Part shown: in pieces, positions 42,183 through 59,748 of the stretch
Layout: every line of letters starts with the position of its first letter
Numbering within the stretch: the first letter of the stretch is position 1
NCBI GenBank assembly: GCA_017433825.1
Contig: JAFRGL010000016.1
Location: 1-64,000, forward strand
Length of the DNA: 64,000 nt
Direction: 5' to 3'
Origin: Eubacterium sp.
Lineage (GTDB): Bacteria; Bacillota; Clostridia; Lachnospirales; Lachnospiraceae
Notes under the pieces: model-generated
Database searches by the model: none
The model's input: only the letters and a program-made list of their open reading frames with translations
Told to the model about the DNA's origin: nothing
Translations under genes and position numbers: made by a program

Positions 42183-43616
42183 TTAAGCAGGCTCTCCCAG
42201 ATAATAAAAGCCATGGCATTTCAGAAGGCGTACATTTACAATCTGACCGATGAGGCTTTCGTCTCCCGGAAAATGTACGGTAATGTTATTTGCAAGCCGG
42301 CCGGTAACCAGGCTTTCATCCTGGCTGTTTTTCATTTCCACAAGTACCGGCAGGGTCTGACCTTCAAAACGGGCGCAGCTTTTCTTCGCCTTTTCCTGCA
42401 CCAGGGCCAGCAGCCTGTCAAAACGTTCTTTTGCGGTCTTTTCATCCACCTGGTTTTCCATCTTTGCGGCAGGCGTACCGCTTCTTTTGGAATACAGGAA
42501 TGTAAAGGCGGAATCAAAGCCCACGCGCTCCACCACGTCCAGGGTTTCGGCGAAATCTTCTTCCGTTTCCCCCGGGAATCCCACGATAATATCCGTGGTA
42601 AGGGAAATATCCGGGCATTTTTCACGGATTTTCCGCACCAGTTCCAGATAGTCTTCCTTCGTATACCGGCGGTTCATCTTCTCAAGGATCCGGGTGCTGC
42701 CGGACTGCAGGGGCAGGTGAAGGTGCGGGCACACCTTCGGTTCGGAAGCCATGACTTTTATCAGTTCATCCGACAGGTCTTTCGGATGGGAGGTCATGAA
42801 CCGGACGCGTTCGATTCCGGGTACGCGGCAGGCCTTCGAAAGCAGTTCCGCGAAGGTTACGGGTTCATCAAGGCCCTTGCCGTAGGAGTTCACGTTCTGG
42901 CCCAGCAGCATGATTTCCTTCACGCCGTCTTCCGCCAGATGTCCGATTTCACAAATGATTTCTTCCGGCCTTCGGGACCTTTCCCGTCCGCGGACGTAGG
43001 GCACGATACAGTAGCTGCAGAAATTATCGCAGCCGTAGGTGATATTGACGCCGGATTTGAAGGCGTACATCCTGTCCACAGGCAGTTCCTCCACCGTCAC
43101 ATCCGATTCCTGCCAGATATCGACAATCATGCCCTTCTGCGTAAATACCTGGTACAGAAGCTCCGCCAGGCGGTAAATATTATGGGTGCCGAAGATCAGG
43201 TTGACGAACCGGAAGCTTTGCGTCAGCTTTTCCACCACATGGGCTTCCTGCATCATGCAGCCGCACAGGCCGATGATCATTTCCGGATTGCCCTTTTTGT
43301 AATGATTCAGTCTTCCAAGCCTTCCGTAAACACGGACATTCGCGTTTTCCCGGACGGTGCAGGTGTTGTAAAGCACCAGGTCTGCCTCTTCGCTTTCGAT
43401 ATTCTCATAGCCGATCTCTTCCAGGATACCCCGCAGCTTTTCCGAATCCCGGGCATTCATCTGGCAGCCGAAGGTTTCCACATGACAGGTAAGCTTCCTG
43501 CCGGCATCCTTCTCTTTTTCCGCCAGGATTCCTTTGCATCTGTCTATATAATAATACTGCCGCCTGCGTTCCGCATCAGAACTGCTTTCAGGCACTGCAT
43601 TATTTTTTACGGTCAT
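42183..43616 (-). CDS. miaB: tRNA-2-methylthio-N6-dimethylallyladenosine synthase
   Basis: 477 residues from the ATG at 43616, chosen for the GGAG nearby and because earlier codons have no family resemblance. N-terminal UPF0004 domain with three cysteines (ETFGCQMNARDSE, YNTCTVRENA, GLCGCMMQ), radical-SAM CxxxCxxC (YGCDNFCSYCIVPYVRGRE) and a C-terminal TRAM domain. It adds the methylthio group to i6A37 of tRNA. It begins inside the end of the Sel1-repeat gene (17 bp overlap) and may be transcribed with the secretion-like cluster. Confidence 0.95.
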   Translation of the reverse strand: MTVKNNAVPESSSDAERRRQYYYIDRCKGILAEKEKDAGRKLTCHVETFGCQMNARDSEKLRGILEEIGYENIESEEADLVLYNTCTVRENANVRVYGRLGRLNHYKKGNPEMIIGLCGCMMQEAHVVEKLTQSFRFVNLIFGTHNIYRLAELLYQVFTQKGMIVDIWQESDVTVEELPVDRMYAFKSGVNITYGCDNFCSYCIVPYVRGRERSRRPEEIICEIGHLAEDGVKEIMLLGQNVNSYGKGLDEPVTFAELLSKACRVPGIERVRFMTSHPKDLSDELIKVMASEPKVCPHLHLPLQSGSTRILEKMNRRYTKEDYLELVRKIREKCPDISLTTDIIVGFPGETEEDFAETLDVVERVGFDSAFTFLYSKRSGTPAAKMENQVDEKTAKERFDRLLALVQEKAKKSCARFEGQTLPVLVEMKNSQDESLVTGRLANNITVHFPGDESLIGQIVNVRLLKCHGFYYLGEPA

Positions 43617-44559
43617 TTGTCTTTTTTTCTCCATCTGTGATTTTACCGCTTTTGCGCAGTCTGTCAATGTGGCGTGCGGCTGCTTTGTAACCCAGTTTTG
43701 CGGCCTGTTCATACCATTTCACGGCTTCTTTCAGGTCGCAATCCACGCCTTTGCCGTTCTCATACAGACGCCCGATATAAAAGCATGCCAGGTAGTTGTT
43801 CCTGTCCGCAGCCTTCCTGTACCAGTTCAGGGCTTCCGTATAGTCTTTTTCCACACCTTTGCCCTTTTCATACAGGATGCCGATGAAAAGCGCGCCCAAG
43901 TCATCTCCCTGGGCAGCCGCTTTTGTATACCATTTCAGAGCTTCCGCATAATCCGTTTTCACGCCTTTTCCCACCTGGTAAAAGGCGCCAGTACGGTCCT
44001 GGGCAAGGCTGTAATTCTGCTCAGCCGCCAGCTTGTACCATTTCAGGGCTTCCTTTTCATTCTTCTCTGTGCCGATGCCCTCTTCCCAGAGTTCGCCTAA
44101 ATGAAACTGTGCGTGATAATCGTCCATTTCCGCGGCTTTTTCATACCACACGCGGGCTGTATCCGCATTTTTATCCACACCCCGGCCGTATCTGTAGCAG
44201 TTGCCCAGGCAGGTCATGGCAGCTGAATTCTTCAGTTCCGCCGCATTCCGGTACCAGGAAACCGCTTCATTTATATCCGCATCGACCCCCAGGCCGTTTT
44301 CGTACATCCGTCCGAGATAAAAAGCGGCAATGGAACTGCCCTGGGCGGAAGCATCCCGGAAGCAGTCCAGGGCTTTCAGATAATTTCTGTCTTCATAGGC
44401 GGAAAGGCCTGCCATCAGCAGACCTTCATCCTCCGGTTTTGAAAGCTGGCCGGACGGTTTCTTTGAAAATACGGAAAGGAAGGAGTCGCGGGAATAATCA
44501 AATCCGCAGTCCGGACATTTTGCCTGGCGGATGGTTCTCCCGCATTTCAGACATTTCAT
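43600..44559 (-). CDS. zinc-ribbon and Sel1-repeat protein
   Basis: 319 residues from the ATG at 44559; the frame open further upstream overlaps the preceding gene and is unlike the family. The N-terminus CLKCGRTIRQAKCPDCG is a four-cysteine zinc ribbon. From about residue 60 there are about seven Sel1-type repeats of ~36 residues (pattern A.yyLG.mYe.G.GV..D..eAl.WYrkAAe). Sel1 repeats form a helical scaffold for protein contacts. It is the last member of the WxD/E1-E2-JAB cluster, 25 bp after the previous gene, and may serve as its adaptor, but it could also be unrelated. Confidence 0.8.
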   Translation of the reverse strand: MKCLKCGRTIRQAKCPDCGFDYSRDSFLSVFSKKPSGQLSKPEDEGLLMAGLSAYEDRNYLKALDCFRDASAQGSSIAAFYLGRMYENGLGVDADINEAVSWYRNAAELKNSAAMTCLGNCYRYGRGVDKNADTARVWYEKAAEMDDYHAQFHLGELWEEGIGTEKNEKEALKWYKLAAEQNYSLAQDRTGAFYQVGKGVKTDYAEALKWYTKAAAQGDDLGALFIGILYEKGKGVEKDYTEALNWYRKAADRNNYLACFYIGRLYENGKGVDCDLKEAVKWYEQAAKLGYKAAARHIDRLRKSGKITDGEKKTNDRKK

Positions 44560-44584
44560 GAAATACAACCTCACATTATTTAAA

Positions 44585-45034
44585 TCATCGTCTGCTGCAG
44601 ACGGGGCCGACCACTTTAGAAAGCACCTCTGCCGGCAGCAGCCGGCTGAACAATTCCCTGCAGCCGGATACGGTCTCCGGGTCGGGAGCGCCGCTTTCCG
44701 CAAGCAGCCTTCCAAACAGACTGACGTAACGGTCTCTGCCGGCAAGATAACTGTCATAATCCGTCACCGCCAAAGCCTGCGAAAACGAAATATCCGCGCC
44801 GAAACGGCCTTTCAGTTCATCCGGGGAATATGCCGTCACTTTCCCGTCGGATACGGAAACGCACAGCATTCGTTTCAGAATCCAGCTGTTCTCTTTCACA
44901 CGGCTGTACAGGAACGCAATCTTTGCTTCCCCTCTGTCGGAAAACAGGAAGGGAACCTCTTCCTTCCATGCGTCGGGAATCCCGGCCATTTCTTCGGATT
45001 TCCGCAGGGCGTTCACACAGGCTGTATAGTCCAT
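44585..45034 (-). CDS. unknown protein, possible immunity protein for the upstream peptidase
   Basis: 149 residues from the ATG at 45034, which has AAAGGA before it; the ATG at 45052 overlaps the upstream stop by 4 bp but lacks a ribosome site. No family is recognised and there is no signal peptide or membrane segment. It is a compact alpha/beta sequence with a SWILKRMLCVSVSDGKVTAYS strand pair and a Leu-rich helical end. Its place right behind the W-x-D/peptidase gene, with coupled translation, is the usual place of an immunity gene. That role is an inference only. Confidence 0.6.
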   Translation of the reverse strand: MDYTACVNALRKSEEMAGIPDAWKEEVPFLFSDRGEAKIAFLYSRVKENSWILKRMLCVSVSDGKVTAYSPDELKGRFGADISFSQALAVTDYDSYLAGRDRYVSLFGRLLAESGAPDPETVSGCRELFSRLLPAEVLSKVVGPVCSRR

Positions 45035-45048
45035 ACCGGCATTTCCTT

Positions 45049-46092
45049 TCATCGAATAATATTATCCGTGATATTGGCAGGCCTTCCGCTTAATGCAGCC
45101 GCCAGTTCCGCGGCAGGGATAACGTCCATCCTGCCGGTACCCGTATCACTGTAGATAAAGTAAGAACCGTCTTCCGTCACACTCAGCAGGGAAATGGCAT
45201 GGCCGCCGCTCTGGCCGTTGCGCCACAGCCGTTCCACATCCACACTGACGATAACGCCGTGCCCCCGCTGTATGTAAGCTGCAAGCGTATGTATGGTTTC
45301 CGCCCGGTTTTCGTCCACGGGCAGGGTAAATGTGGAAAGCCCGCAGCGATTCAGGATTTCCTGCCTGCCCGAGGCGGAGGTTCCTCCGCGTTCCGAAGGA
45401 TCCGGGTCGGACAGCTCCAGGCCTTCAACCACGTTCGGTGAACAGTTAAGCGCGCAGCTTATGATCTGGTCCTCCGTGGTCTGCACCCCGGCCATGGTCA
45501 GAAGATTTGCGCACTGGCACAAGCCGCAGCTGCCTCCCATCGGATAACTGCTGTGGCCCTGCACCTTTATCAGCTGTGTATAGGTGCCGATGGGATCGTC
45601 ATATACGGACATATTCTGTCCGTCAATCACCATCTCCCGGTACATCTGTTCTGTTCTCTGCAGCGACCTGGGGACGCCTTCCGGTTCCGGCCCGGGGATA
45701 AACCCGGCCGCCCGGGCGGCATTGCCGCTTATGACATCATCGGTGAAAAACCTTCCCCCGTCTGTACCCTGCACGGTACTGCCGCCTGCACTGCCTGCCG
45801 CGCCGCCGACTGTACCCGCCGAAAATACGCTGTCATATTCCTCCACAATCCGGATCAGGGAATCCAGATACGCGGATGCATCCAGCATGACGGGATAGAC
45901 GGTTTTTACTGCTTCCACACAATCGCCGACAATGTCTTCCAGCTGCCGGTAGCTTTCATCATCCCATTCGGCAGCCGCTTCCTTCATCCTGGCCAGCAGG
46001 TGCGCCAGGGCGGCATCGACCCCTTCTTTTGCCCGCAGGATGCTTTCCCGGCATATGACGATTCCTTCGGCCGTCGTATTGATATCACTCAT
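45049..46092 (-). CDS. WxD-type T7SS-like domain fused to a papain/C39-like cysteine peptidase
   Basis: 347 residues. Residues 1-90 match the free WXG100-like protein encoded at 55034: both have W-x-D-E-x-Y, then L..IV..CV.A.K and a final IRI...... F. A Gly/Ser/Thr-rich linker (~92-115) follows. The C-terminal ~200 residues look like a C39/papain-like peptidase: GGSCGLCQCANLLTMAG (nucleophile Cys189, with Gln178 as a possible oxyanion residue), GGHAISLLSV (His298) and YSDTG (Asp316). By family logic it would be a secreted effector or a processing protease. The start overlaps the ATPase stop by 4 bp. Confidence 0.7.
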   Translation of the reverse strand: MSDINTTAEGIVICRESILRAKEGVDAALAHLLARMKEAAAEWDDESYRQLEDIVGDCVEAVKTVYPVMLDASAYLDSLIRIVEEYDSVFSAGTVGGAAGSAGGSTVQGTDGGRFFTDDVISGNAARAAGFIPGPEPEGVPRSLQRTEQMYREMVIDGQNMSVYDDPIGTYTQLIKVQGHSSYPMGGSCGLCQCANLLTMAGVQTTEDQIISCALNCSPNVVEGLELSDPDPSERGGTSASGRQEILNRCGLSTFTLPVDENRAETIHTLAAYIQRGHGVIVSVDVERLWRNGQSGGHAISLLSVTEDGSYFIYSDTGTGRMDVIPAAELAAALSGRPANITDNIIR

Positions 46093-49000
46093 TGATTAAG
46101 GCTTTCAAAATATTCTTCCAGTTCGTCTGCGGTCGGAGCCGTGTAAGGCTTCAGCTGGAATGTGTCGGCAATGCCGTCGGTATAATATACCAGGTTGCTG
46201 TTCAGGCCCGCAACGGATACGCCCTCCACCAGGTTTACGGCATCGTTGCTGCTTAAGGCAAATACAACTCTCTCCGGGAAGCGGCCCAACACATTTTCAC
46301 CGAAACGCATGGTCTCTTTAACCGTGGCGTAATCCGAACAGGTAATCACGAAATGAATGCCGAATCCGGAACCGTCGTCGATAACCTTCAGAAGTTTTTC
46401 ATTGGAAAAGCCTTGTGCCTGCCGTCTGGCAGCTGCGTCAGCGGATGCCTGCCTGGTATTTCTGGCGGCAACCACCGAATTGAAGGCGGCAAAGATATCC
46501 ATGGGATCGCTCTCCGGCTCCAGAACGGTTTCTTCCGCTTCTTCCGCTTCTTCGGCGTCCAGATATTCGCTTTCTTCCACCCGGTCGCCCTTGAACATGG
46601 CTTTTATCAGGTCAAGGTACTGAAGGTTGCGGATGAGCATGCAGATAATGCCCTTCTCGTTTTTCTTCTTCCTGGCCTGGTATTCCTCATAAATATCGTG
46701 GATAAACCGCACGATATCCGCCCTGGACTCTGCAGTATACAGTCTTCCGGTATGGTCTTTCAATACCTGGTAAAACTCTTCCGATGCGCCTTCGCCTATC
46801 ATGGTCTCACCGTCCACACAGTAGAGTGTAGTGTTTTTATTAAGCAGCGCAGATACCATGTAGTCTGTAACCAGATGGTTCGTCATCACCGTATTGGTGC
46901 CGCAGATGAGCAGGTTGTGCTTCTTCTTCCTGTCCAGGGCAAGCGCGAAGGGAGGAGCCACTTTGATCTTGGAACCCATATGCACCCGCACCGGCAGTTC
47001 TTCCGTATAGCCGATATTGTTTGCGGCAAGGTAATCGGTCAGCTTCTCTGTACGGCTTCCCTCGAACACCTGCGTGGTGCAGGGATATTCCGCGTATTTC
47101 TCACTGATGGCCGCCAGGTATTTCTCCTTGGAAGCATCATCGCAGAAGGCCACACGCAGGGCGATATTGCCCAGCTGCAGGCCGGAATCGTTGTTCTCGG
47201 GAGATTCCGTATAGTCTTCGTTCAGAACGGCGGTACCCTTCGGACCCATCATCTTCGTCTTGGCGTCCGAGCTGTACAGATCGGAGAACAGATACCTGGT
47301 ATCTGCCTCGCCGCACTTTAAGCCCATACGGATACGCATCTGTTCGATGGTGCCGCGGTCGAGGGTCAGCGAGCTGATAATGTTCGCGGACTGGGTGGCC
47401 ATCACCAGGTGCAGGCCGTAGGCACGGCCTTCCGTCACAATCCGTTTCGCCAGGTTCGCACAGTTTATGGCCACCTTGCGGTTGGTGGCGTCGTTGAACA
47501 GAATCTGGAACTCGTCCATGATGATGAGAATCCTGGGCATTGCATTCCCGGTCGTCCTCACATAGTCCGCAATGTTGGTAACGCCGCCTGCTTCCTTGAA
47601 GCGCACCGAGCGTTCATCCATCTCGGCCACCAGACGTTCCAGGATGCTCTCGCCGAATTCCTGCATGGCGTCCAAAGCCAGAAGATTAATGCTGGGCAGC
47701 CGTTCGGATTCGTAAATCTTGAATTCCGTACCGCCCTTGAAATCCATCAGGTACAGCTGCAGCTCGTCCGGGGAATAATTCATCATGCCGCTCATGATAA
47801 TCGTGTGCAGCAGGGTGGATTTGCCGCCGCCGGTACCGCCGCCCACCAGACAGTGGTGCGACGTGCCTTCGCCGAAAATAATGCTGACAACCGCATCCTC
47901 GTCGCCGATGCCGATGGGGATATCCAGCAGTCTGGAAGCCTTCTTCGAATACAGGGCTTCCGGCAGGATGTCTTCAAAGGCAATGGCCTTGTGCTTGATG
48001 ATATTGGCGGCTTCGGTGTAGTCCTTAACGAAGGCCGCAATCTCAGCCGGGGATTTCGGATTTTCGATGTAAACCGGCAGTCCGAAAGGAAGAAGCTGGT
48101 AATTGCCGTCCTTGTATTCCACGGAAATACTGTATTTCTCAATCTGGGCCAGACGGTCGTCAATACTCTCATAGCGGGAAAGCTGCACATCCGGATCATG
48201 GCAGATAATGGTGTAAATTCCGCATTTTCCGCCGTTCCTTAAAATATTGATGAGCATGTCCACGCTTCTGGCATCCAGGCCCCGCGGGAAATCATACAGA
48301 AGAAGCACAGTGACGGATTCGGAACGCTTAGGCGTATTCCGGTTGTATTCCAGGATATTCTCATACCGGGACCCCAGCTTGTTCTGCGTAATGTCGTCTA
48401 TCTGGGCATTAACTTCTTTTAAGAGGTCGTATACCTTATCCTGGCTGGTAATAATGGTAAACAGCTCCGGCAGGGCCTTCCTCAGATCTGAGAACGGCTT
48501 CGTACTGCTGCGGTTTTCCACGTCGACCGCCTTAAAATTCACCTTGGTGACCGGCAGGAAGGATAAAAGCGTCCACATGATATGGTGGGTAAAGGCGCGG
48601 ATCTCCTCCGCAGTCTGCTCCGGGCTGGTACACAGCACATTGAAGGTGTTGTTCAGATCCAGGTTCAGCGGCAGCTTGAGCTGATTGATAAGCCGGATTT
48701 CCCCGTCTTCGTTAAATGCCCTGCGGATGGTTTCAAAATGCACGCTGTCGCTGAAAATATCCGCCGGGTACAGCACTTCACCCAGTGTAATATTGTCCGG
48801 GAAGGTGCTTTCCGTGGAAGGAATCGTGAAATAATTCTTCTTATAGGCATCCGTCATGCCTTTGATGAACCGGATATGGTTCTCCAGTTCATTTTCATTT
48901 CTGGTATCCACCAGCTTCTTGATAAGCGGCGAGAAGGCGATGCCGCGGTTCTTGATGCCTTCGTACAGAAGCATGTATTTGCCGAAGAACTTGTTGAATT

Positions 49001-50561
49001 CCGTTCTCTCCGGCATTGGATGATACAGCAGGGGTATGCCGCGCATGGTAAAGGAATTGTCCGCGTAGGCAATGCCGAAGGTAAGTCCCTCGATGGCTTT
49101 CAGCCCCTTGGCATATTCGTCCGGCCTGCCGTTTAAGGTATTGTCCGGAGAAGTCAGGATTATGGTATAAATGCCGCAGCGGCTTCCGTAGCGCAGCACA
49201 TTGCGGAGCCCGGACAGGCTCTGCTCGTCAAAGCCTTTCGGATAATCATAGACGACAAGGAGCTCGGGTGTAACTTCATAATCCTCCCGCGCCTGCGCAT
49301 AGTCATAAATGGTATCGAATTCCGTCCCCAGCCTGTTCTGCAGCACGTCCTCGACCACCTGGCCCAGGGCGTTCATCTTCGCGAAAATCTCATCCCTGGT
49401 GATATAAATCTTCTCCCCGAAAAGATCGGGCAGCTTCTTTTTCGCGTCAAAATAAGGCGAAATACTGGTGCCCCGGTTCTCCGGATCGATGACTGAATAC
49501 GTCAGCTTGGCAATCGGGCAGGAAGAAAGGAAGCCGAACATCATGGCATGGGAGAAGGCTTTTAAGGAACTGCTCTCCGCCGCGTCGGAAGTCACAAGCC
49601 ATGCAGGCGCGTCCAGCGTGGTCATGGCAATCGGGAAACGGATCGAACCGTCCACCATGATATCCGCGCACTTGTCCTTAATCAGGGAGGAAACCACGGA
49701 AGACTGTACAAAGAAATCCACCGGGTAGTCCACAAAACACATGTACAGAATACCCTGCTGGATTGTTCCGGTATTGTTTACCTTCTGCCTGCGGTCTTCA
49801 TAAGAGGAAATCACGTTGTACAGGTAATTAATCAGTTCCTCCGGGAGCACATTGTCCAGGTCCTCGCAGATCTGGCCTGCCACGTCGTCCAGCGCGGCAT
49901 AGTAATTCTGCTCGAGCGTATTCAGGTCACGCTGGGCAGCCGCGTTGATTTCTTTCCTTTTGGCAAAATATGCTTCCTTCTGGTACGCCAGGCTTTCGCT
50001 GGTAACGGCAGGCAGCTCTTCTTCGATTTCAGCCACAAAGGAACGTATCGTATTCAGCAGGATGATAAGTTCCTCATAATCCTGCTTTCTTTTATTGGAA
50101 AACAGATAGTTGATACCGTTTACGAGCTTGGGCAGGATATCCCTGGAATATTTGTCGGAAATGGCCCGGTATTCGGATTTTATCTGCTGCAGGATAGTGA
50201 AATAATTGTCCGTATCGTCGAACCGGTCGGTGGTGGTCCCTGCAAGCTCCGCTTCCTTTTTCTGCTTTGTCTTCAGGTAATACTTGTCAGCATGCTGCAG
50301 ACGGTAATCCAGATTTTCCATATCAGCCTGCATCTGCCGCGCGTCATTGATGGTATTCCTGGATTTCGCGGAGACAGCGTCACAGTTGTTCTTGTAATTC
50401 GTCTCCAGCTGGGAAAGCGCCGCATTGAACCGGGCGGTCATCTGCTGTCTGTTCTGCTCATAGGCCGTCCTGCTGGCATTTATCCTTGCTTCTGAACGAT
50501 CTGCAAAATCGTTGATTTCACCGATGAGCTGAAACACTTCCACAGAAGTCATTGCGTCCAT
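46089..50561 (-). CDS. FtsK/SpoIIIE-like ATPase of a type VII secretion-like system (EssC-like)
   Basis: 1490 residues. Residues 1-230 are long charged coiled-coil helices. Two degenerate ATPase-like modules follow (~320-510 and ~640-830) that are clearly copies of each other (VIDPENRG and AVDVENRS, VVYDYPKGFD and LLYDFPRGLD, GIYTII in both). Residues ~880-1140 form the one intact module: Walker A GGGTGGGKST, Walker B ILIIMDE, and MATQSA/RIRMGL. A last degenerate module (LLICGTNTVMTN) fills ~1190-1470, after an acidic stretch. Unlike EssC there is no FHA domain and no membrane helix. It would work as the motor of the cluster, with substrate the WxD proteins. Confidence 0.85.
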   Translation of the reverse strand: MDAMTSVEVFQLIGEINDFADRSEARINASRTAYEQNRQQMTARFNAALSQLETNYKNNCDAVSAKSRNTINDARQMQADMENLDYRLQHADKYYLKTKQKKEAELAGTTTDRFDDTDNYFTILQQIKSEYRAISDKYSRDILPKLVNGINYLFSNKRKQDYEELIILLNTIRSFVAEIEEELPAVTSESLAYQKEAYFAKRKEINAAAQRDLNTLEQNYYAALDDVAGQICEDLDNVLPEELINYLYNVISSYEDRRQKVNNTGTIQQGILYMCFVDYPVDFFVQSSVVSSLIKDKCADIMVDGSIRFPIAMTTLDAPAWLVTSDAAESSSLKAFSHAMMFGFLSSCPIAKLTYSVIDPENRGTSISPYFDAKKKLPDLFGEKIYITRDEIFAKMNALGQVVEDVLQNRLGTEFDTIYDYAQAREDYEVTPELLVVYDYPKGFDEQSLSGLRNVLRYGSRCGIYTIILTSPDNTLNGRPDEYAKGLKAIEGLTFGIAYADNSFTMRGIPLLYHPMPERTEFNKFFGKYMLLYEGIKNRGIAFSPLIKKLVDTRNENELENHIRFIKGMTDAYKKNYFTIPSTESTFPDNITLGEVLYPADIFSDSVHFETIRRAFNEDGEIRLINQLKLPLNLDLNNTFNVLCTSPEQTAEEIRAFTHHIMWTLLSFLPVTKVNFKAVDVENRSSTKPFSDLRKALPELFTIITSQDKVYDLLKEVNAQIDDITQNKLGSRYENILEYNRNTPKRSESVTVLLLYDFPRGLDARSVDMLINILRNGGKCGIYTIICHDPDVQLSRYESIDDRLAQIEKYSISVEYKDGNYQLLPFGLPVYIENPKSPAEIAAFVKDYTEAANIIKHKAIAFEDILPEALYSKKASRLLDIPIGIGDEDAVVSIIFGEGTSHHCLVGGGTGGGKSTLLHTIIMSGMMNYSPDELQLYLMDFKGGTEFKIYESERLPSINLLALDAMQEFGESILERLVAEMDERSVRFKEAGGVTNIADYVRTTGNAMPRILIIMDEFQILFNDATNRKVAINCANLAKRIVTEGRAYGLHLVMATQSANIISSLTLDRGTIEQMRIRMGLKCGEADTRYLFSDLYSSDAKTKMMGPKGTAVLNEDYTESPENNDSGLQLGNIALRVAFCDDASKEKYLAAISEKYAEYPCTTQVFEGSRTEKLTDYLAANNIGYTEELPVRVHMGSKIKVAPPFALALDRKKKHNLLICGTNTVMTNHLVTDYMVSALLNKNTTLYCVDGETMIGEGASEEFYQVLKDHTGRLYTAESRADIVRFIHDIYEEYQARKKKNEKGIICMLIRNLQYLDLIKAMFKGDRVEESEYLDAEEAEEAEETVLEPESDPMDIFAAFNSVVAARNTRQASADAAARRQAQGFSNEKLLKVIDDGSGFGIHFVITCSDYATVKETMRFGENVLGRFPERVVFALSSNDAVNLVEGVSVAGLNSNLVYYTDGIADTFQLKPYTAPTADELEEYFESLNQ

Positions 50562-50614
50562 ATTGTCATCCTTTCTTAAGCCCGTTGTATAGTAACCGGC
50601 GGTTCATCCCGCCT

Positions 50615-51757
50615 TTATTTTTCTTCAATAACCTCGTATCTGCATCTGCCTTTGCAGTTTTCACCGAAACCTACCCGTAAGGATGTGGTCACCTGCAGCG
50701 GATAGCTGAAGATTTCCACCATTTCCCCTCCGATCTCCGGGTCGGATGTATTGCTCACCAGGGTGTACTGGGTCAGGTGCCCCAGAAGCCTCGGTCTGTA
50801 ATCCGGGTTGTTTTTATTTAAAATATCGATGATAAGCTTGATGCCGATGGTGGTGATGAAATTGATATCCACGGAAATGCCGGGTTCGAATTTCATTCCT
50901 TCCGTGCTTTCCTGGTTGGAATATATGTGATGGTTCGCCTCGGCCCTTGCGGAAGGGTTGCTGCCGTTGCCCAAGGCGCATTCATAGCAGGGCATGTTCT
51001 CTCCCGGGATATGGTAGAAAATCTCGCCCGCGAAAGCCCTCTCCCAGAAACCGATGGACAGGAAGGCCGCGCCGTAGTAAATGCTGATGCGGTTGGAATA
51101 TACGTCAGCCGTTCGGTTGTCCGCACAGCCCACAAATACCGTGTCGCCCGGCACGCAGAATTCATCCAGAATCTGTTTGGGAATGTTCTGGATCTCCCCG
51201 CCGAAGGTTTTGATATTTACGGAAGGATTGATGTTTTTCAGCTTCCTGGTAAGACAGTTCACCTTCAGGTCGCCCACGTCTTCTATACCGCACTGGTGGC
51301 GGCAGATGTTGTGGTACTCCATGGTATCCGGATCGACCAGCACGAAATTGCCCACACCGGCCCTGGCCAGTTCCATGGCCACAAGGCTTCCTACGGAGCC
51401 GCATCCTAAGATGACAGCCCGCTTTGACTGCATGACCGGGGTTTCCAGGATGCCTTTGTTTCGGGAGAAAATGCTCTGGTACAGCTCGTAGGATTCCACC
51501 TCCAGCTTTTCACCGTCAAAGAAAAACTCGGCTGAAGCGCCTTTTTTCACCGCACAGAAGCCTTCCGCGGGAGCACTTCCTTCCGGCAGCACATTTCCCA
51601 GAAAATCCCCTCTTCCGCGAAGCTCTTCCGGGAATATATTTATAATCTCCGTATCGGCAATATACTTGCCGCGCATTTCGCCTTCCGGCATATTTTCCAG
51701 CTGTTCTTTGGAAATAAATACGGTCTTTTTAATCTCTTCTCCGAAAAAGTTCAGCAT
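50615..51757 (-). CDS. E1/ThiF-like ubiquitin-like activating enzyme
   Basis: 380 residues. A ~110 residue N-terminal extension precedes the ThiF/E1 adenylation fold: AVILGCGSVGSLVAMELARAG (GxGxxG 118-123), VDPDTMEYHNICRHQ (Asp142, Asn150, Arg153), DLKVNCLTRKLKNINP (Asp163, Lys165) and FVGCADNRTAD. Zinc ligands are CYEC (257, 260) and CKGRC (368, 372). Such enzymes use ATP to adenylate the C-terminus of a small modifier. The usual catalytic Cys of the crossover loop is not obvious. It starts in the last base of the JAMM peptidase gene and is followed by the ATPase gene 53 bp on. Confidence 0.82.
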   Translation of the reverse strand: MLNFFGEEIKKTVFISKEQLENMPEGEMRGKYIADTEIINIFPEELRGRGDFLGNVLPEGSAPAEGFCAVKKGASAEFFFDGEKLEVESYELYQSIFSRNKGILETPVMQSKRAVILGCGSVGSLVAMELARAGVGNFVLVDPDTMEYHNICRHQCGIEDVGDLKVNCLTRKLKNINPSVNIKTFGGEIQNIPKQILDEFCVPGDTVFVGCADNRTADVYSNRISIYYGAAFLSIGFWERAFAGEIFYHIPGENMPCYECALGNGSNPSARAEANHHIYSNQESTEGMKFEPGISVDINFITTIGIKLIIDILNKNNPDYRPRLLGHLTQYTLVSNTSDPEIGGEMVEIFSYPLQVTTSLRVGFGENCKGRCRYEVIEEK

Positions 51758-52800
51758 TATTTCTTATCCCCCTTCTTCACGGGTGCCACAGCCTTTTTGA
51801 TTCTGTCCATAAGGGAAGCATACATGGGGACGTCCGGTTTTTTGGATGCCTTCTCCTCTTTACCCTGGGTCTCTTCCTTCACGTCATCTGTTTCCGTTTT
51901 CTCCGCCTTTGCGGCTTCCCAGGCATTCTTAAAGCAGTCCGCTTTATAAACATAGCATTTATCGTCCAGCGCGAAAATCAGGCTGTCCGTTTCGTCCATG
52001 TATTTGAACCAGAGCGTCACCTCCGCATCGCTGTCCGCGCTATCCGACAGGCAGACATAGGCGCCTTTTCTGGTAATGAACAGCTTCACGCCCAGTTCAT
52101 CCGACAAAAAGCCCACATCTTCCACGATTTCATCAATAATCCTGTCCGCCGCGAAATCCGCATCCGCCTTCGTTTCCGGAATCACGCCGGTGTATTCGTC
52201 AAGCTTCGGCAGCGCCTTATCCAGGAATGTGCGGAAATCCATATCGGCTGAAGCTTTAGCGGCTTCTTCCGGTACCGGCGTCCTTCCCATGACGCGCTGC
52301 ATGATTTCGTTGAATTTCTCCGGTTTGCGCAAAGCCAGAAGTTCGTCGGGAATCAGGTAATCCCCCACTTCGTACTCAATCTCGCTGTACCGGCAGGGTC
52401 TTCCCACATGGTAGCAGGTAAGCCGGAAATCCGGGTCCACATTCACCAGGCAGGAAATCGCTCCTTCCTTTCGCATGGCAGCATATTTGGCATTGGTGCC
52501 GTCATCCGTAGATGAAAAGATATCGAAGGAACCCGGGTGCCGGTGCCACAGGCCGATGAGCTCCAGGGGTTCCTCATATAAATGGGCGATTTTATTGATT
52601 AAATGCTGGGTGTAGGCCTGGTCATATTCAAAATAAGCAACCTGGAAGATGGATTTCGGGCCGGGATCGATGGCTTCGACCACATACCAGTCGCTGCCGT
52701 CCGTCTTGCCCAGAAACAGTCCTCCGGTCTCGGTTTTAATCTTCTCGCAGGTCTCGGAAAGGATGCCCGCATAAGCTCTTTCCGAAAAAATGATCTTCAT
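51757..52800 (-). CDS. JAMM/MPN isopeptidase
   Basis: 347 residues from the ATG at 52800, chosen for GGAGACTTGAAA ahead. Residues 1-140 carry an intact JAMM zinc site: Glu24 in TETGGLFLG, His86 and His88 in LWHRHP and the S-x-x-D of FSSTDD (Ser96, Asp99). The rest (~150-320) is a second alpha/beta domain and a charged Lys/Glu-rich tail. JAMM enzymes cleave ubiquitin-like modifiers from targets or process modifier precursors. The E1-like gene overlaps its stop by 1 base. Confidence 0.85.
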   Translation of the reverse strand: MKIIFSERAYAGILSETCEKIKTETGGLFLGKTDGSDWYVVEAIDPGPKSIFQVAYFEYDQAYTQHLINKIAHLYEEPLELIGLWHRHPGSFDIFSSTDDGTNAKYAAMRKEGAISCLVNVDPDFRLTCYHVGRPCRYSEIEYEVGDYLIPDELLALRKPEKFNEIMQRVMGRTPVPEEAAKASADMDFRTFLDKALPKLDEYTGVIPETKADADFAADRIIDEIVEDVGFLSDELGVKLFITRKGAYVCLSDSADSDAEVTLWFKYMDETDSLIFALDDKCYVYKADCFKNAWEAAKAEKTETDDVKEETQGKEEKASKKPDVPMYASLMDRIKKAVAPVKKGDKK

Positions 52801-52816
52801 TTTCAAGTCTCCTAAA

Positions 52817-52860
52817 AAGCGCACCAGGAACATCCTTTTAGACGCGTTCTTGGTGCGCTT
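52817..52860. terminator. hairpin inside the cluster, between the E2-like and JAMM genes
   Basis: AAGCGCACCAGGAAC (52817-52831) pairs with GTTCTTGGTGCGCTT (52846-52860), 14 of 15 bases Watson-Crick. T-runs lie on both sides (CTTTTTAG on the minus strand). A smaller hairpin, CTTCTTAA/TTAAGAAG, lies at 52887-52910. It may lower transcription of the ATPase half of the operon. No convincing promoter is seen after it. Confidence 0.65.
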
Positions 52861-52918
52861 ATTTTTACATTGCTGTTTCCTGCAGGCTTCTTAAGATGAG
52901 TATTAAGAAGCGGGGTTC

Positions 52919-53467
52919 TTAATAGTTTCCTTCCATCGCCACATCATCGCTGATTTCGCCGTTCAGCCACATCTCGCAGAGCATAATCCATTTGCATGCC
53001 CAGGAGAGCGCGGAAGCGGCGGATGTGGACCTGCTCTGGCCGGTTTTGAAGTACTTCGGGTCAGCGGAGCAGATAAAATACTCCTCATTACGGCCGAAAT
53101 TGCTGCGGTAAATATGCGGCAGGCCCAGGCCGAAGCCCCTCTTTACGCAGTTTTCGTAGCTGCCGTAGGTCTCTTCCAGAAGAGGCATCATTTTCTGCGC
53201 AATATCCTTCAGGCGGGGGGAAACGGGCAGAATCTGGATAGACCCGCCGTATTCGTCCTGGCCCGCATGGGGATGGTTGTTTTTATAAATAAGCATCAGA
53301 TCCCAGACCATGCCGCCTTCGCCCATGGGCTGAACTTTTCCGCGCCAGTACAGTCTGCCGGAGCCGTCCTGCAGCTGATTGATCTGGAAGGAAGGGAAAT
53401 ACTTGCGCATGGCCAGAACTTCCGCCTTGTACAGCTCGGGATCATTTTCATACCAGTAAGATGCCAT
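52919..53467 (-). CDS. E2 (UBC)-like protein
   Basis: 182 residues. The pattern fits the bacterial E2-like family seen next to E1-type enzymes: a strand-rich core (RLYWRGKVQP, VWDLMLIYKNNHP, GGSIQILPVSP), a His in LPHIY (118), the candidate catalytic Cys133 in YFICSADPKYF, and a helical end SALSWACKWIMLCEMWLNGE, quoted as its key Trp, Cys and Glu residues. E2 proteins carry a ubiquitin-like protein as a thioester from the E1. The call is a pattern match, supported by the E1 and JAMM genes next door. The gene begins 15 bp after the 56-residue protein gene. Confidence 0.6.
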   Translation of the reverse strand: MASYWYENDPELYKAEVLAMRKYFPSFQINQLQDGSGRLYWRGKVQPMGEGGMVWDLMLIYKNNHPHAGQDEYGGSIQILPVSPRLKDIAQKMMPLLEETYGSYENCVKRGFGLGLPHIYRSNFGRNEEYFICSADPKYFKTGQSRSTSAASALSWACKWIMLCEMWLNGEISDDVAMEGNY

Positions 53468-53482
53468 GATTTCTCCTTTGCT

Positions 53483-53653
53483 TTATGCGAGCTTTCCGTC
53501 CGGAACCTGGATGGCGGTCATGCCGGTATCCTGCATCTCTTCTTTGGTGGCCACCTGTCCGCTGGGGGATACCACTACGGGCTCTCCCTGACGAAGGGCT
53601 TCCGCCAGTGCACGTCTTCTTGCCGCTACAACATCATTGTTATTGTTATCCAT
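53483..53653 (-). CDS. 56-residue protein, candidate modifier or chaperone of the cluster
   Basis: 56 residues from the ATG at 53653, which follows GGAGG. A polar MDNNNND start is followed by an alanine/arginine-rich helix (VVAARRRALAEALRQG), a short strand pair (EPVVVSPSGQV) and the end MTAIQVPDGKLA. It is too short for a full ubiquitin fold. The Gly three residues before the end is of interest, because a JAMM enzyme could cut there to leave a C-terminal glycine for E1 activation. This is a conjecture. No family is recognised. Confidence 0.7.
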   Translation of the reverse strand: MDNNNNDVVAARRRALAEALRQGEPVVVSPSGQVATKEEMQDTGMTAIQVPDGKLA

Positions 53654-53678
53654 GATATTCCTCCTTGTTTGGTATAAG

Positions 53679-54734
53679 TTAAGCCGCGAACTCGCGGATA
53701 ATCTCTCCGTTTTCCGCAATCCTTGTTACGCATTCGCGCATGTAGGCTTCGGTCTGGTCTTCGCCCTGTTCCAGCATCATGCGGGCGATATTGTTGTTGT
53801 ACAGTTCGCCGCCTTCCTGCATCAGGGTCTCCAGGTCCACGCCGCGGTTATTCTGCATAACCATGGTGTATTCCATATAGTCGTTCATATTCTGCAGCGC
53901 AGCGCTGTCGGACTCTATGAAGCCGGAAGTTTCCTTCATATACGACAGGTAATCTTTCAGCTTCGCAACCGTCTCGATAAAAGCCATAATCGCGTATACG
54001 AAGAAGCTTATGCCGCAACGTATGGCGCCTATTATTATATCCAGCAATATACTGCCGGTCATGGCGAAGAAACTGGGTACATCGCCGAAGAACCTTTTGA
54101 AGAAATTCAGAGCGCTTCCGCCGATGGCGCCGAAAATAATACCGAAGAAGATACCGGCACCGACGCTGTCGCTTTCCGCACCGATGGCGCATCCTAAAAA
54201 TACACCGATAGCGATACCGATCAGGAAGAAAATGAACCTGAACCGGATAGTCTTATAGTTTTTCTGCAGGGTGACTACGTTATCCTGCACCAGTTCCTGC
54301 GTACAGTCGTAACAGAGGAACTTGCCCTCGTATTCGCCGGCAGATACGCCGTAGGAGTCACAGCAGTCCCGGCAAAGGGGCTTTCCGCAGCGGGCGCAAA
54401 CGCCGTAGGCGGGCTCTGACTGATGATAATAGCAGGACTTTCCCTGAATCCTCTGTCTTCCCGGGCTGGAGAAGGTGGGAATATCATCTCCCCGCGGTGC
54501 AGAGAAAGTGGGAATGTCATCGTTTTTCGGCGCGGAAAATGTGGGAATACTATCATTTTTCGGTGCCGTGAATGTCGGAATGTCAGCCGAAGCGTTCGTC
54601 TGCCGTGTATTCTGTCTTGGCTGCATCCTGGGCGTCTGGTTCTGGGGTTTCGGAACAGAAGCCGTAGGCGTTCCGCAGTAACGGCAGAATTTGCTTCCGT
54701 CGTCTATCTGCCTGCCGCATGATGTACAAAACAT
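53679..54734 (-). CDS. zinc-ribbon, B-box-like and membrane protein of the cluster
   Basis: 351 residues. N-terminal zinc ribbon (CTSC, CRYC), then four copies of a ~10 residue repeat DDIPTFSAPK (residues ~50-92), then an eight-ligand cross-brace zinc finger resembling a B-box: Cys101-x2-His104, CARC (113, 116), CRDC (121, 124) and CYDC (141, 144). Residues ~165-260 hold two to three membrane segments (FIFFLIGIAIGVFLGCAIG, GIFFGIIFGAIGGSAL, ILLDIIIGAIRCGISFFVYAIM). The last ~90 residues are cytoplasmic and helical. B-box and RING folds serve as E3 adaptors in eukaryotes, so this could be the membrane anchor or E3-like part. GAGGAGG precedes the start. Confidence 0.8.
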   Translation of the reverse strand: MFCTSCGRQIDDGSKFCRYCGTPTASVPKPQNQTPRMQPRQNTRQTNASADIPTFTAPKNDSIPTFSAPKNDDIPTFSAPRGDDIPTFSSPGRQRIQGKSCYYHQSEPAYGVCARCGKPLCRDCCDSYGVSAGEYEGKFLCYDCTQELVQDNVVTLQKNYKTIRFRFIFFLIGIAIGVFLGCAIGAESDSVGAGIFFGIIFGAIGGSALNFFKRFFGDVPSFFAMTGSILLDIIIGAIRCGISFFVYAIMAFIETVAKLKDYLSYMKETSGFIESDSAALQNMNDYMEYTMVMQNNRGVDLETLMQEGGELYNNNIARMMLEQGEDQTEAYMRECVTRIAENGEIIREFAA

Positions 54735-54751
54735 TGTTGTTCCTCCTCTAG

Positions 54752-55021
54752 CTAAAAACGTTTTGAAGTATATTCATCCATCAGCTGGGCCAGCCGCTCC
54801 AGCTTCGGAAGTGCTTCCCGTAAAGAATCCACCGGTGATTCGATCATGTCTGCTACCCTGCCCATGGCGTCGCCGAATTCGGCGGCCTTCTGGTCATCCC
54901 AGCCGGACGCAGACCGCACGCCCTGCCGGATACCGGCGCTCATGTCCGTCAGATCGGCAATGGTTCTTGCGATATCATTTTTAATCTCCCGCACGGTGGC
55001 GGAATTGCCGCGTATTGCCAT
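54752..55021 (-). CDS. WXG100-like protein with WxD motif (second)
   Basis: 89 residues, two helices around a turn. The turn reads SGWDDQKAAEF (Trp41, Asp43), in the position of the WXG100 W-x-G. The C-terminus EYTSKRF has no clear YxxxD/E export signal. WXG100 proteins form four-helix dimers and are type VII substrates. It lies 18 bp upstream of the zinc/membrane protein gene. Confidence 0.78.
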   Translation of the reverse strand: MAIRGNSATVREIKNDIARTIADLTDMSAGIRQGVRSASGWDDQKAAEFGDAMGRVADMIESPVDSLREALPKLERLAQLMDEYTSKRF

Positions 55022-55033
55022 CTTTCCTCACCT

Positions 55034-55309
55034 CTAGAATATTTCTTCTGTCTGATCCAGAATACGGATCATTTCGTTAATCGTCCGTTCCGAATCCTGA
55101 ATACCAGGAATCGGTTTCTTTAAGGCATCCACGCATTCCTGCACGATTCTGCCCAGTTTGGCATAATTCTCGTCGCTCCAGCCGCTTCCGGCATTGGAGT
55201 AACTGCTCTGCAGATTTGCTGCAACCGTTTCCAGTACGGAAATCGAGCTTTCACATACTTTGATTCCCGCTTCCAGACCGGCGCGTTCAACGGAAATACC
55301 GTCTGCCAT
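55034..55309 (-). CDS. WXG100-like protein with WxD motif (third)
   Basis: 91 residues. SGWSDENYAKLGRIVQECVDALK (Trp44, Asp46, Tyr49; shown only to 20 key residues around the motif) sits at the helix turn. The N-terminal domain of the peptidase at 45049 aligns with it over its full length, which links the free protein to the fusion. An IRILDQTEEIF tail lacks YxxxD/E. It is one gene before the 54752 protein, with a 12 bp gap. Confidence 0.78.
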   Translation of the reverse strand: MADGISVERAGLEAGIKVCESSISVLETVAANLQSSYSNAGSGWSDENYAKLGRIVQECVDALKKPIPGIQDSERTINEMIRILDQTEEIF

Positions 55310-55334
55310 ACTGTCCTGTCTCCTTTTCGTTCAA

Positions 55335-56078
55335 TCAGCGGAAAACCGCTTCCATTTCATCCACCAGGTCAATGCACTCGTCGATAACCAGATGCTTCCT
55401 TGCGGCTTCGTCCTCCGCTTCGCTTTCGAACTGCACCACCGCATTGACGTAGGTATTAAAATCATCATTTACATTCCACTGGGCGGTTTTTAAGCGCTGC
55501 AGCTTGTCCTGGTAACGGTACAGCCGTCTTTTCGCTTCCGCGAGACGGTTTTCACATTCATTTTTCTCCATTTCCAGGTCATTTATCTCGGACCTCAGGC
55601 GGGTGCACTCCGCTTCTGCCTCGTAAATGGCATTTTCCGTATCGGTAATCTCGCTTCTGACCTGCGACATGGCGTTGCGCACGTCAGACAGCGCGCTGTC
55701 AATACCGCTTATATCATCGTCCTCATCCGCCCGGGAACGCATATTCATCAGCTCGGATTCCCGGTTGTTCAGTTCCTGCAGGGTATAGTTCAGGTGGTTC
55801 AGCCGGTCATACATGGAAGGCAGCGCCGTCTCCAGCTTGTGCAGCCGGAACTGACAGTCGTCAATCCTTTTCTCCAGTCTCGCGATCTGCGCCTCCAGTT
55901 CCTTAACCAGTTCTTCCAGCTCCGCCACCATATCCTCGGTACGGGCTACCTCATACCGGCAGTCCGAAAGGCAGGCATCCCTGCGGGAGGCTGCCGTATA
56001 TCCCACACCGGCCATATCCGCCCGGAAAACGCCCAGGGCAGTCCGCACTATGACCAATCCTTCCCGCGCAACATCCAT
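55335..56078 (-). CDS. coiled-coil protein of the cluster
   Basis: 247 residues, almost wholly charged heptad-like helix (ELEELVKELEAQIARLEKRID, TDTENAIYEAEAECTRLRSEI; quoted in short pieces), with a non-coiled N-terminus and a C-terminal QWNVNDDFNTYVNAVVQF segment. No signal peptide, membrane segment or known family. It lies 4 bp after the first WXG100-like gene. Its likely role is structural, perhaps like the helical proteins that partner WXG100 proteins. Confidence 0.8.
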   Translation of the reverse strand: MDVAREGLVIVRTALGVFRADMAGVGYTAASRRDACLSDCRYEVARTEDMVAELEELVKELEAQIARLEKRIDDCQFRLHKLETALPSMYDRLNHLNYTLQELNNRESELMNMRSRADEDDDISGIDSALSDVRNAMSQVRSEITDTENAIYEAEAECTRLRSEINDLEMEKNECENRLAEAKRRLYRYQDKLQRLKTAQWNVNDDFNTYVNAVVQFESEAEDEAARKHLVIDECIDLVDEMEAVFR

Positions 56079-56082
56079 CTCT

Positions 56083-56316
56083 TCAGTACTCCTCTTCCGC
56101 TATGGCAAAAAAAGCGTTGATAGAATCACACAGGCGATCACCCGAAACCAGAACGTCCCTGGAATGCAGCGCGATGGCGGAAATCCCGGATGCCAGTGAA
56201 GCGTACTGGGCGTCCCTCCACAGAAAAGAGGCTGACTGTACGCCGCCGGAAAGCTTCTGTACACAGCCCTGGAAAGAATCGATATCCGATTTGATATTCG
56301 CCGAATGAGAATTCAT
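56083..56316 (-). CDS. WXG100-like protein with WxD motif (first)
   Basis: 77 residues, first gene of the cluster. Two helices flank FLWRDAQYASLASG (Trp33, Asp35, Tyr38). The end is AFFAIAEEEY. Relation to WXG100 is by helix-turn pattern only; the overall sequence is shorter than the usual ~100 residues. Confidence 0.65.
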   Translation of the reverse strand: MNSHSANIKSDIDSFQGCVQKLSGGVQSASFLWRDAQYASLASGISAIALHSRDVLVSGDRLCDSINAFFAIAEEEY

Positions 56317-56361
56317 CTGCCAGCCTCTGATGGATAAATATATATAATAATCTAATGTAAT

Positions 56362-56391
56362 ATTTTACTCCAGAAATCGGTTGATTGTCAA
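56362..56391 (-). promoter_or_regulatory. promoter of the WxD/E1-E2-JAMM cluster
   Basis: On the minus strand TTGACA and TAAAAT are spaced by 18 bases, ~45 bases before the first ATG. A 9 bp inverted repeat (CACTGTAAA at 56412-56420 with TTTACAATG at 56423-56431, one wobble) lies just upstream and might be an operator; it overlaps the end of the lipoprotein gene. Confidence 0.7.
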
Positions 56392-58589: not shown

Positions 58590-58644
58590 GGCGGTTTTCC
58601 TTTGGGTCACATTATATAGTGTAGCGTTTATACTCTTACTACTG

Positions 58645-58673
58645 ATCTTAGTGTGAGACGGGGGAACTGTCAA
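58645..58673 (-). promoter_or_regulatory. promoter of the SH3 lipoprotein gene
   Basis: On the minus strand TTGACA and TAAGAT are spaced by 17 bases, ~50 bases before the ATG. Confidence 0.75.
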
Positions 58674-58704
58674 GGCAGAAATGAAATAACCTTTTAGTAT
58701 AATA

Positions 58705-59643: not shown

Positions 59644-59715
59644 TTAAGAATCCTCGGAAATAGTCTGTGTCTATTGGTTTGCATATCAAATATGCTTTTT
59701 AAGTTCTTTTGGAAA

Positions 59716-59739: not shown

Positions 59740-59748
59740 CTATCATTT

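What the first reader, a model, noticed from the sequence alone, without database searches (positions are those of the whole stretch)
43600..56391. Type VII secretion-like machine combined with E1, E2 and JAMM proteins
One operon from a single promoter codes for WXG100-like proteins, an FtsK/SpoIIIE ATPase, an E1-like activator, an E2-like protein, a JAMM isopeptidase, a B-box-like zinc membrane protein and a peptidase. Ubiquitin-like E1/E2/JAMM modules are known in Bil and CBASS defence, and YukD-type ubiquitin-like proteins are known in T7SS, but I know of no characterised system with this whole set. It suggests secretion or effector activity controlled by protein conjugation. Whether earlier genome surveys noted it I cannot check.
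Basis: partly seen in the sequence, partly recalled or inferred. Interest (0 to 1): 0.92.

Follow-up and report, generated by a model that had tools for sequence, protein, structure and literature searches.

The report
Secretion-like operon with ubiquitin-type conjugation enzymes
Some gut bacteria keep, as one conserved gene cluster, a toxin-export-like machine together with enzymes of the kind that attach ubiquitin to proteins and remove it; if it works as it looks, reversible protein tagging would help control the machine, using a tag that may not be ubiquitin-shaped.

Summary
A minus-strand operon (about 43600-56391) encodes three WXG100-like proteins, a coiled coil, a zinc/B-box membrane protein, an E2, a JAMM isopeptidase, a ThiF-type E1, an EssC-like FtsK ATPase and a WXG-domain, C39-peptidase-like effector with a probable immunity protein.

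A scan of about 85,000 species genomes gave 28 loci: 25 with this gene order as far as the contigs reach, three divergent. E2, JAMM and E1 are recognisable. The E1 has no conserved crossover-loop cysteine. The window ATPase shows no membrane helix by hydropathy, and no YukD, YukC or ThiS was found in this genome, so it is not a plain T7SSb.

Likely function: a CBASS-like E1-E2-JAMM cycle conjugating an operon-encoded protein, perhaps not beta-grasp, through a C-terminal Ala, controlling a WXG/EssC effector machine. Candidates: the 56-aa protein (invariant IxVPxGKLA) and the B-box protein (C-terminal Ala in 21 of 25 loci). Conjugation and secretion are inferred. My limited paper searches found no description.

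The parts
56362..56391 (-). promoter-like site, TTGACA-18-TAAAAT, about 45 bases upstream of the first gene
   Evidence: 11 of 12 matches; the scan as a whole is not above chance
56083..56316 (-). WXG100-like small protein 1 (77 aa, W-x-D)
   Evidence: no Pfam hit alone; joined to the other WXG-like genes by the iterated profile
55335..56078 (-). coiled-coil protein, perhaps YwqH-like (247 aa)
   Evidence: PF16888 1.6e-7, just below its cut-off, among 143 coiled-coil-type hits; in 22 distinct loci (duplicate L037 removed)
55034..55309 (-). WXG100-like protein 2 (91 aa, W-x-D)
   Evidence: profile; no significant Pfam hit
54752..55021 (-). WXG100-like protein 3 (89 aa, W-x-D)
   Evidence: PF06013 E 0.011, below cut-off; profile
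53679..54734 (-). membrane protein with zinc ribbon, B-box-like zinc domain and predicted membrane helices (351 aa), ending ...FAA
   Evidence: eight Zn ligands (CxxH, CxxC, CxxC, CxxC) in 26 of 26 rows, one a duplicate; C-terminal Ala in 21 of 25 distinct loci
53483..53653 (-).
   Evidence: RBS and codon-position pattern; separate ORF in 27 of 29 distinct loci; C-terminal motif invariant in 26 of 26 rows
52919..53467 (-). E2-like conjugating enzyme (182 aa), candidate catalytic Cys133
51757..52800 (-). JAMM isopeptidase with C-terminal extension (347 aa)
   Evidence: Prok-JAB 8.7e-8; E-HxH-S-D in 27 of 27 rows
50615..51757 (-). ThiF-type E1 (380 aa)
   Evidence: ThiF 5.7e-29; nearest solved chains include UBA5, MccB, Cap2, MoeB; no Cys at residues 261-302 in 25 of 25 rows
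46089..50561 (-). EssC-like FtsK/SpoIIIE ATPase without a predicted membrane helix (1490 aa)
   Evidence: FtsK_SpoIIIE 3.2e-22; EccCa 3.9e-30 and EssC 4.5e-29, both below cut-off; hydropathy
45049..46092 (-). putative effector: WXG-like N-terminal domain plus C39-like cysteine-peptidase domain (347 aa)
   Evidence: related C-terminal domain on a different N-terminus in control locus L049
44585..45052 (-). 155-aa protein overlapping the effector stop; probable immunity protein
   Evidence: homologue follows the effector also in L014, L017 and L020
43600..44559 (-). zinc-ribbon plus Sel1-repeat protein (start inferred); possible accessory
   Evidence: Sel1 8.1e-57; Sel1-type relatives within the cluster region of L010 and L032

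Best explanation
A WXG/EssC-type effector-handling machine (probably export of WXG-domain toxins) is combined with its own reversible protein-conjugation cycle. Proposed steps: (1) the E1 adenylates the C-terminal Ala of an operon-encoded protein, most likely the 56-aa protein (about 0.4), otherwise the membrane B-box protein (about 0.3); (2) because the E1 has no conserved crossover-loop cysteine, the acyl-adenylate passes more or less directly to E2 Cys133; (3) the E2, perhaps helped by the zinc B-box protein as an E3-like membrane platform, joins it to a component of the machine; (4) the JAMM removes it, and may trim the 3-4 residue tails seen on some small proteins. The modification would gate assembly or activity of the ATPase at the membrane. 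Shown here: gene content, conserved order, conserved catalytic-type residues and tails, E2-like predicted fold. Inferred: conjugation, identity of modifier and target, secretion.
For: Gene order kept in divergent hosts. A small-protein relative stays with E1/E2/JAMM even in L006, where no ATPase gene was found nearby, as three tandem repeats by eye. The small protein's C-terminus is its most conserved part. B-box protein: Ala at the end in 21 of 25 despite a variable linker, against 10 of 240 other ORFs of 250 aa or more. Precedent: CBASS Cap2 conjugates the non-beta-grasp cGAS through a C-terminal Gly or Ala (PMC10097602, passages). The nearest E2 fold listed is a CBASS E2. No YukD or ThiS found in this genome; YukD in 1 of 24 and ThiS in 10 of 24 relatives' genomes. 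Effectors: a WXG-like N-terminus with varied C-terminal domains.
Against: No experiment. 11 of 26 small proteins carry 3-4 residues after KLA. In L034 and L035 repeats like the small protein (by eye; the profile did not find them) lie in front of the E2 in one ORF, so no free C-terminus without cleavage. The small protein's divergence tracks the ATPase (r 0.73) better than E1 (0.47), E2 (0.31) or JAMM (0.12), which suits a part of the machine rather than a partner of the E2. Four of 25 B-box proteins end in Val or Glu, and B-box was not found in the three divergent loci. The small protein's model is poor (pLDDT 67, pTM 0.39), so 'not beta-grasp' is only suggested. The ATPase looks soluble, odd for a secretion motor. 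The own genome is 92.66% complete and completeness of the 24 relatives is not given.
Confidence: 0.5

Rival explanations
1. The small protein is not conjugated but is a docking or E3-like partner of the E2 or of the machine, and the protein whose C-terminus is activated is the membrane B-box protein, tethering targets to the membrane.
For: Small-protein-like repeats in front of the E2 in one ORF in L034 and L035 (by eye); B-box C-terminal Ala 21 of 25 with variable linker; small protein's divergence follows the ATPase (r 0.73) and B-box (0.57) more than the E2 (0.31); Foldseek lists several RING and U-box chains for the small protein, all at E 1.8 or worse.
Against: VIA Z no higher than 2.4 for any match of the small protein, so the U-box likeness is not supported; B-box was not found in three divergent loci that keep E1/E2/JAMM; 4 of 25 do not end in Ala.
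Confidence: 0.25
2. Anti-phage defence: a CBASS/Bil/Bub-like immune operon in which the EssC-like ATPase and WXG proteins are effectors.
For: E2, JAMM and E1 match CBASS-type models; the ATPase domain matches SspH (4.1e-23) and mads_8 (5.8e-17) models.
Against: No CD-NTase match in the scans run; WXG-like proteins and WXG-fused variable effectors with an immunity-like gene point to effector delivery. The E2 had no confirmed relative in viral contigs and no match in phage records, though a host defence gene need not be in either.
Confidence: 0.1
3. The E1 serves sulfur transfer or peptide processing (ThiF/MoeB/MccB-like) and its neighbours are unrelated passengers.
For: E1 has no conserved crossover-loop Cys, as MccB and MoeB by recall; both are among its closest solved relatives.
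Against: E2 and JAMM lie beside it in all 29 distinct loci, a set found through the E2, with catalytic-type residues kept; no ThiS found in this genome.
Confidence: 0.07
4. The C-terminal -AA or KLA ends are ssrA-like degrons and have nothing to do with E1 activation.
For: C-terminal Ala-Ala is read by ClpX (recalled).
Against: Does not explain the conserved E1/E2/JAMM set; acceptance of a C-terminal Ala by a related E1/E2 is known from CBASS.
Confidence: 0.08

Closest known systems
CBASS type II Cap2 (E1-E2) and Cap3 (JAB), with cGAS-like CD-NTase
   Same: E1, E2 and JAMM together; a CBASS E2 heads the VIA list and CBASS E2 models match; the conjugated protein there is not beta-grasp and ends in Gly or Ala (PMC10097602, passages)
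   Different: Here E1 and E2 are separate genes; no CD-NTase match in the scans run; Cap2's E1 has a predicted catalytic Cys that has no conserved counterpart here; linked to WXG/EssC genes
T7SSb and T7SSc-j (Garrett, Higginson and Palmer 2024, PMC11217815; parts 1-4 of 7 read, plus a term search)
   Same: WXG100-like proteins, EssC-like FtsK ATPase, WXG/LXG-type effectors with immunity-like genes
   Different: The paper describes the ATPase as membrane bound and finds a YukD-like TsxB in all new subtypes but T7SSd; ThiF, JAB and E2-like occur 0 times in its main text. Here no membrane helix in the window ATPase, no YukD found, and E1/E2/JAMM present
Bil and Bub bacterial ubiquitination-like operons
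   Same: E1- and E2-type enzymes (Bil: passages; Bub: passages, and recall)
   Different: They use ubiquitin-like proteins and are not linked to WXG/EssC as far as I recall; the primary papers tried for Bub and Bil were not held
Loci L049 and L050 with related ATPases
   Same: EssC-like ATPase without predicted membrane helix; WXG-like genes by profile in L050 and small genes of that size in L049; L049 has a related C39-like effector domain
   Different: They carry kinase with DnaK/GrpE/DnaJ-like genes (L049) or vWA/PP2C/kinase (L050), labels by eye, and no E1/E2/JAMM by profile
YukD-like Ubl with E1/E2/RING/JAB (Burroughs et al. 2011, recalled; not held)
   Same: Predicted link of a T7SS-type Ubl with conjugation enzymes
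   Different: No YukD found here; the paper could not be read to check overlap

Membership tests
T7SS (any subtype) | EccC/EssC-family FtsK ATPase | tested here: met
   FtsK_SpoIIIE 3.2e-22 over cut-off; EccCa 3.9e-30 and EssC 4.5e-29, both below curated cut-offs
T7SS (any subtype) | ATPase membrane-anchored by N-terminal helices | tested here: not met
   Hydropathy scan only: no peak in the window ATPase; 22 of 30 rows none, 8 of 30 marginal peaks of 1.62-1.81, five of these at residues 276-362. Controls: 7 of 7 EssC with peaks in the N-terminal part, 6 above 2.0, one at 1.74
T7SS (any subtype) | WXG100 proteins | tested here: inconclusive
   Three small genes plus effector N-terminus; best Pfam WXG100 in the window 0.011, below cut-off; motif is W-x-D by eye
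T7SSb | EsaB/YukD and EssB/YukC present | tested here: not met
   0 in own genome, 92.66% complete; B. subtilis control positive. YukD in 1 of 24 relatives' genomes
T7SSb | EssA and EsaA present | not tested
   no search run
T7SSb | ATPase groups with T7SSb EssC | tested here: not met
   26-row domain tree: the 7 EssC controls form a group (99/99) without the window clade (95/96); long branches make deeper joins unsure
E2 superfamily | E2 fold | tested here: met
E2 superfamily | catalytic Cys | tested here: inconclusive
   Cys133 in 28 of 29 rows; that it is the catalytic one is judged from its place in the predicted fold, no residue alignment seen
JAMM isopeptidase | E-HxH-x7-S-x2-D metal site | tested here: met
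   27 of 27 rows
Ubiquitin-type E1 | adenylation domain | tested here: met
   ThiF 5.7e-29; invariant columns
Ubiquitin-type E1 | catalytic Cys in the crossover loop | tested here: not met
   No Cys at residues 261-302 in 25 of 25 rows; 3 of 25 (L012, L016, L033) have one at 303, so none is conserved. The loop's limits are judged from a partial UBA5 alignment and recall
CBASS type II | CD-NTase gene in the operon | tested here: inconclusive
   No CD-NTase match among the genes scanned; not every window gene was scanned
Ubiquitin-like modifier | beta-grasp fold | tested here: inconclusive
   56-aa protein modelled as alpha-beta-beta-alpha-beta at low confidence; no significant Pfam family
Ubiquitin-like modifier | covalent attachment to targets | not testable with these tools
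   needs biochemistry

The most novel reading that the evidence does not exclude
A second ubiquitin-like pathway, after CBASS Cap2, that activates a protein without a beta-grasp fold through a C-terminal alanine, here used to control a toxin-export machine from the membrane, with an E1 that hands the adenylate to the E2 without its own thioester.
Probability: 0.35. Interest if true: 0.93.

Novelty: new variant of a known kind. Interest (0 to 1): 0.82.

Why it matters
[quoted passage not shown] This operon is a concrete, conserved candidate for a second, with modifier candidates named. It would also be the first case that I could find of an E1/E2/JAMM module belonging to a WXG/EssC machine; two related machines carry kinase- and phosphatase- or chaperone-type genes instead. 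By record titles it occurs mostly in gut Clostridia, including a strain record, Faecalibacterium prausnitzii ATCC 27768 (L016), and the cycle could be reconstituted from a few small proteins.

Tried and rejected

C-terminal tails of the other proteins: no conserved terminal Ala or Gly in the three WXG genes, JAMM, E1, ATPase or effectors; coiled coil 2 Ala and 2 Gly of 22; E2 ends in Tyr in 26 of 30.

Correlated divergence: ATPase against E1, E2, small, B-box and coiled coil r 0.61-0.84, 0 of 500 permutations as high; JAMM poor (ATPase-JAMM r 0.17, 40 of 500; JAMM-small 0.12, 74 of 500), perhaps because its C-terminal part is absent in several loci; E2-small only 0.31 (1 of 500). The last speaks against the small protein as the E2's partner; I lowered its share from 0.45 to 0.4 on rechecking.

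Mobile context: E1 not found in 72,556 plasmid records, E2 not in 50,697 phage records; 24 pattern hits in viral contigs, none confirmed.

Rarity in draws: E2 in 3 of 246 genomes of the order, 2 of 391 of the class, 1 of 398 of the phylum, each including the own genome.

Profile search of the PDB with the E2: one chance hit, 0.38. An ATPase homologue in G172 (L046, 20 kb of a 32.8 kb contig) has no E1/E2/JAMM nearby by profile.
Full report
What is there. On the minus strand between about 56391 and 43600 lie, in order: a WXG100-like gene, a coiled coil (YwqH-like, just below cut-off, with many other coiled-coil hits), two more WXG100-like genes, a zinc-ribbon/B-box membrane protein, a 56-aa gene, an E2, a JAMM, an E1, a 1490-aa EssC-like ATPase, a WXG-like/C39-like effector, a 155-aa gene and a Sel1 protein (families). 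Junctions are short or overlapping and most genes have a Shine-Dalgarno-like sequence by eye. A good sigma-70-like match sits just upstream of the first gene, but the scan as a whole is at chance level.

Is it conserved? Searching the order with the E2 gave 3 of 246 genomes including the own one; one of them, G061, carries the same operon with extra genes. A scan of genome contigs (84,980 species) with a four-row E2 alignment gave 28 loci. The scan uses short patterns, so this is a lower bound. Distinct counts with the duplicate removed: E2 (the search anchor) 29, JAMM 29, E1 29 (cut by contig ends in L009 and L034), ATPase 27 (none in the 20 kb of L006 scanned; L009 ends inside the E1), separate small gene 27 (not L034, L035), B-box protein 25 (not found in L006, L034, L035; L024's contig starts at the small gene), coiled coil 22. 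Exactly three small WXG-like genes were found in 22 loci. Record titles name Lachnospiraceae, Oscillospiraceae, Ruminococcus, Christensenellaceae, Bacilli, one Spirochaetes and one Phycisphaerales bacterium, and F. prausnitzii ATCC 27768; most are metagenome-assembled genomes whose names I did not check.

What is conjugated? No YukD-like gene was seen in the operon. Neither YukD, YukC nor ThiS was found in the own genome (92.66% complete). In the genomes of 24 of the 28 loci YukD is in 1 and ThiS-like in 10, three of these partial matches. Two operon proteins have ends that fit C-terminal activation. The 56-aa protein is a real gene: differences fall mostly on third codon positions (core 2067, 1116, 5346; tail 456, 186, 1897 for positions 1, 2, 3; 26 rows). 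Its last nine residues hold seven of its 17 invariant columns. With the duplicate removed, 15 of 26 end exactly at KLA and 11 add three or four residues. In L006, where no ATPase was found nearby, a relative persists beside E1/E2/JAMM, with three repeats by eye; in L034 and L035 similar repeats precede the E2 in one ORF (by eye). Its divergence, however, follows the ATPase (r 0.73) better than the E1 (0.47) or E2 (0.31). The B-box protein ends in Ala in 21 of 25 loci, 20 of them Ala-Ala, though the stretch after its conserved NGEI[IV]RxF varies in length; 10 of 240 other ORFs of 250 aa or more in these loci end in Ala (related sequences and unverified ORFs, so no true P value). In CBASS, 1,583 cGAS proteins from operons with Cap2 and Cap3 end in Gly or Ala with variable penultimate residues (PMC10097602, passages). 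That parallel is the core of my reading.

The machine. By hydropathy the window ATPase shows no membrane helix; of 30 ATPase rows 22 show none and 8 show marginal peaks of 1.62-1.81. Of seven control EssC proteins all show peaks in the N-terminal part, six above 2.0 and one at 1.74, so the contrast is clear for the window but not absolute for each relative. In a 26-row domain tree the window clade is apart from T7SSb EssC and SpoIIIE-type proteins; long branches make deeper joins unsure. The B-box protein, with eight zinc ligands kept in 26 of 26 rows (one duplicate) and two or more predicted membrane helices in 26 of 26 rows, may be the membrane anchor. After the ATPase, 16 of 29 loci have a WXG-like N-terminus fused to variable C-terminal domains: C39-like in the window, L014, L029 and weakly L033 by Pfam, and L017 and L020 by the effector profile; a papain-fold Gln_amidase in L018 (1.8e-12); HExxH proteins in L011, L013, L015, L016 by eye. 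An immunity-like homologue follows in four loci, the window included. A membrane M48/HtpX-like peptidase (label by eye) follows in 15 distinct loci, not in the window region searched. A class-wide search with the ATPase (391 genomes, E 1e-30 or better) found, besides G000 and G571, only two genomes. Their loci, L049 and L050, hold more distant ATPases without predicted membrane helices and, by eye, kinase and chaperone genes (L049) or vWA, PP2C and kinase genes (L050), with no E1/E2/JAMM by profile; L049 has a related C39-like effector domain (2.7e-41). This suggests exchangeable regulatory modules on related machines.

Known or new. The T7SS survey PMC11217815 (parts 1-4 of 7 read) describes T7SSc-j without conjugation enzymes; ThiF, JAB and E2-like occur 0 times in its main text. 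The 2006 survey PMC1779556 (passages) links YukD to ESAT-6 loci and notes that YukD is not conjugated. Searches (listings, with passages of a few papers) showed no description of this cluster in the held library; subscription papers and preprints are mostly missing, including the 2011 prokaryotic RING/E2 survey, which I recall as proposing YukD conjugation and B-box/peptidase links. So 'not described' is provisional.

Verdict. The cluster is real, conserved and unusual. Conjugation is likely, its substrate is a reasoned guess between two proteins, and export is plausible, but an apparently soluble ATPase is a genuine puzzle.

Noticed in passing
L005 441-1313 (-) and 14 further distinct loci: A membrane M48/HtpX-like peptidase gene (label by eye) follows the ATPase or effector region in 15 distinct loci but was not found beside the window operon.
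   Followed up: partly
L049 458-12469: EssC-like ATPase without predicted membrane helix, with kinase, DnaK-like, GrpE-like and DnaJ-like genes (by eye) and a related C39-like effector domain on another N-terminus.
   Followed up: partly
L050 5211-13778: vWA, PP2C and kinase genes (by eye), WXG-like genes and an EssC-like ATPase without predicted membrane helix together.
   Followed up: no
L035 1-20468: Divergent E1/E2/JAMM cluster beside TraG/VirD4-like, ClpP-like and SprT-like genes (by eye); its E2 carries several repeats with a VPKTVV-type motif.
   Followed up: partly
L012 6238-10521 and L033 13183-17576: The ATPase gene is split in two ORFs; assembly error or broken gene.
   Followed up: no
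window 53679-54734: The linker of the B-box protein repeats a DxIPTFSAPxxD-type unit, with similar IPTF motifs in several relatives.
   Followed up: no
L022, L024-L029: JAMM proteins are short (172-207 aa) and lack the C-terminal extension of the window JAMM.
   Followed up: no
window 56424-63970: Upstream genes encode an SH3-domain lipoprotein-like protein, a 312-aa protein without Pfam hit and a 1368-aa surface-type repeat protein (by eye).
   Followed up: no
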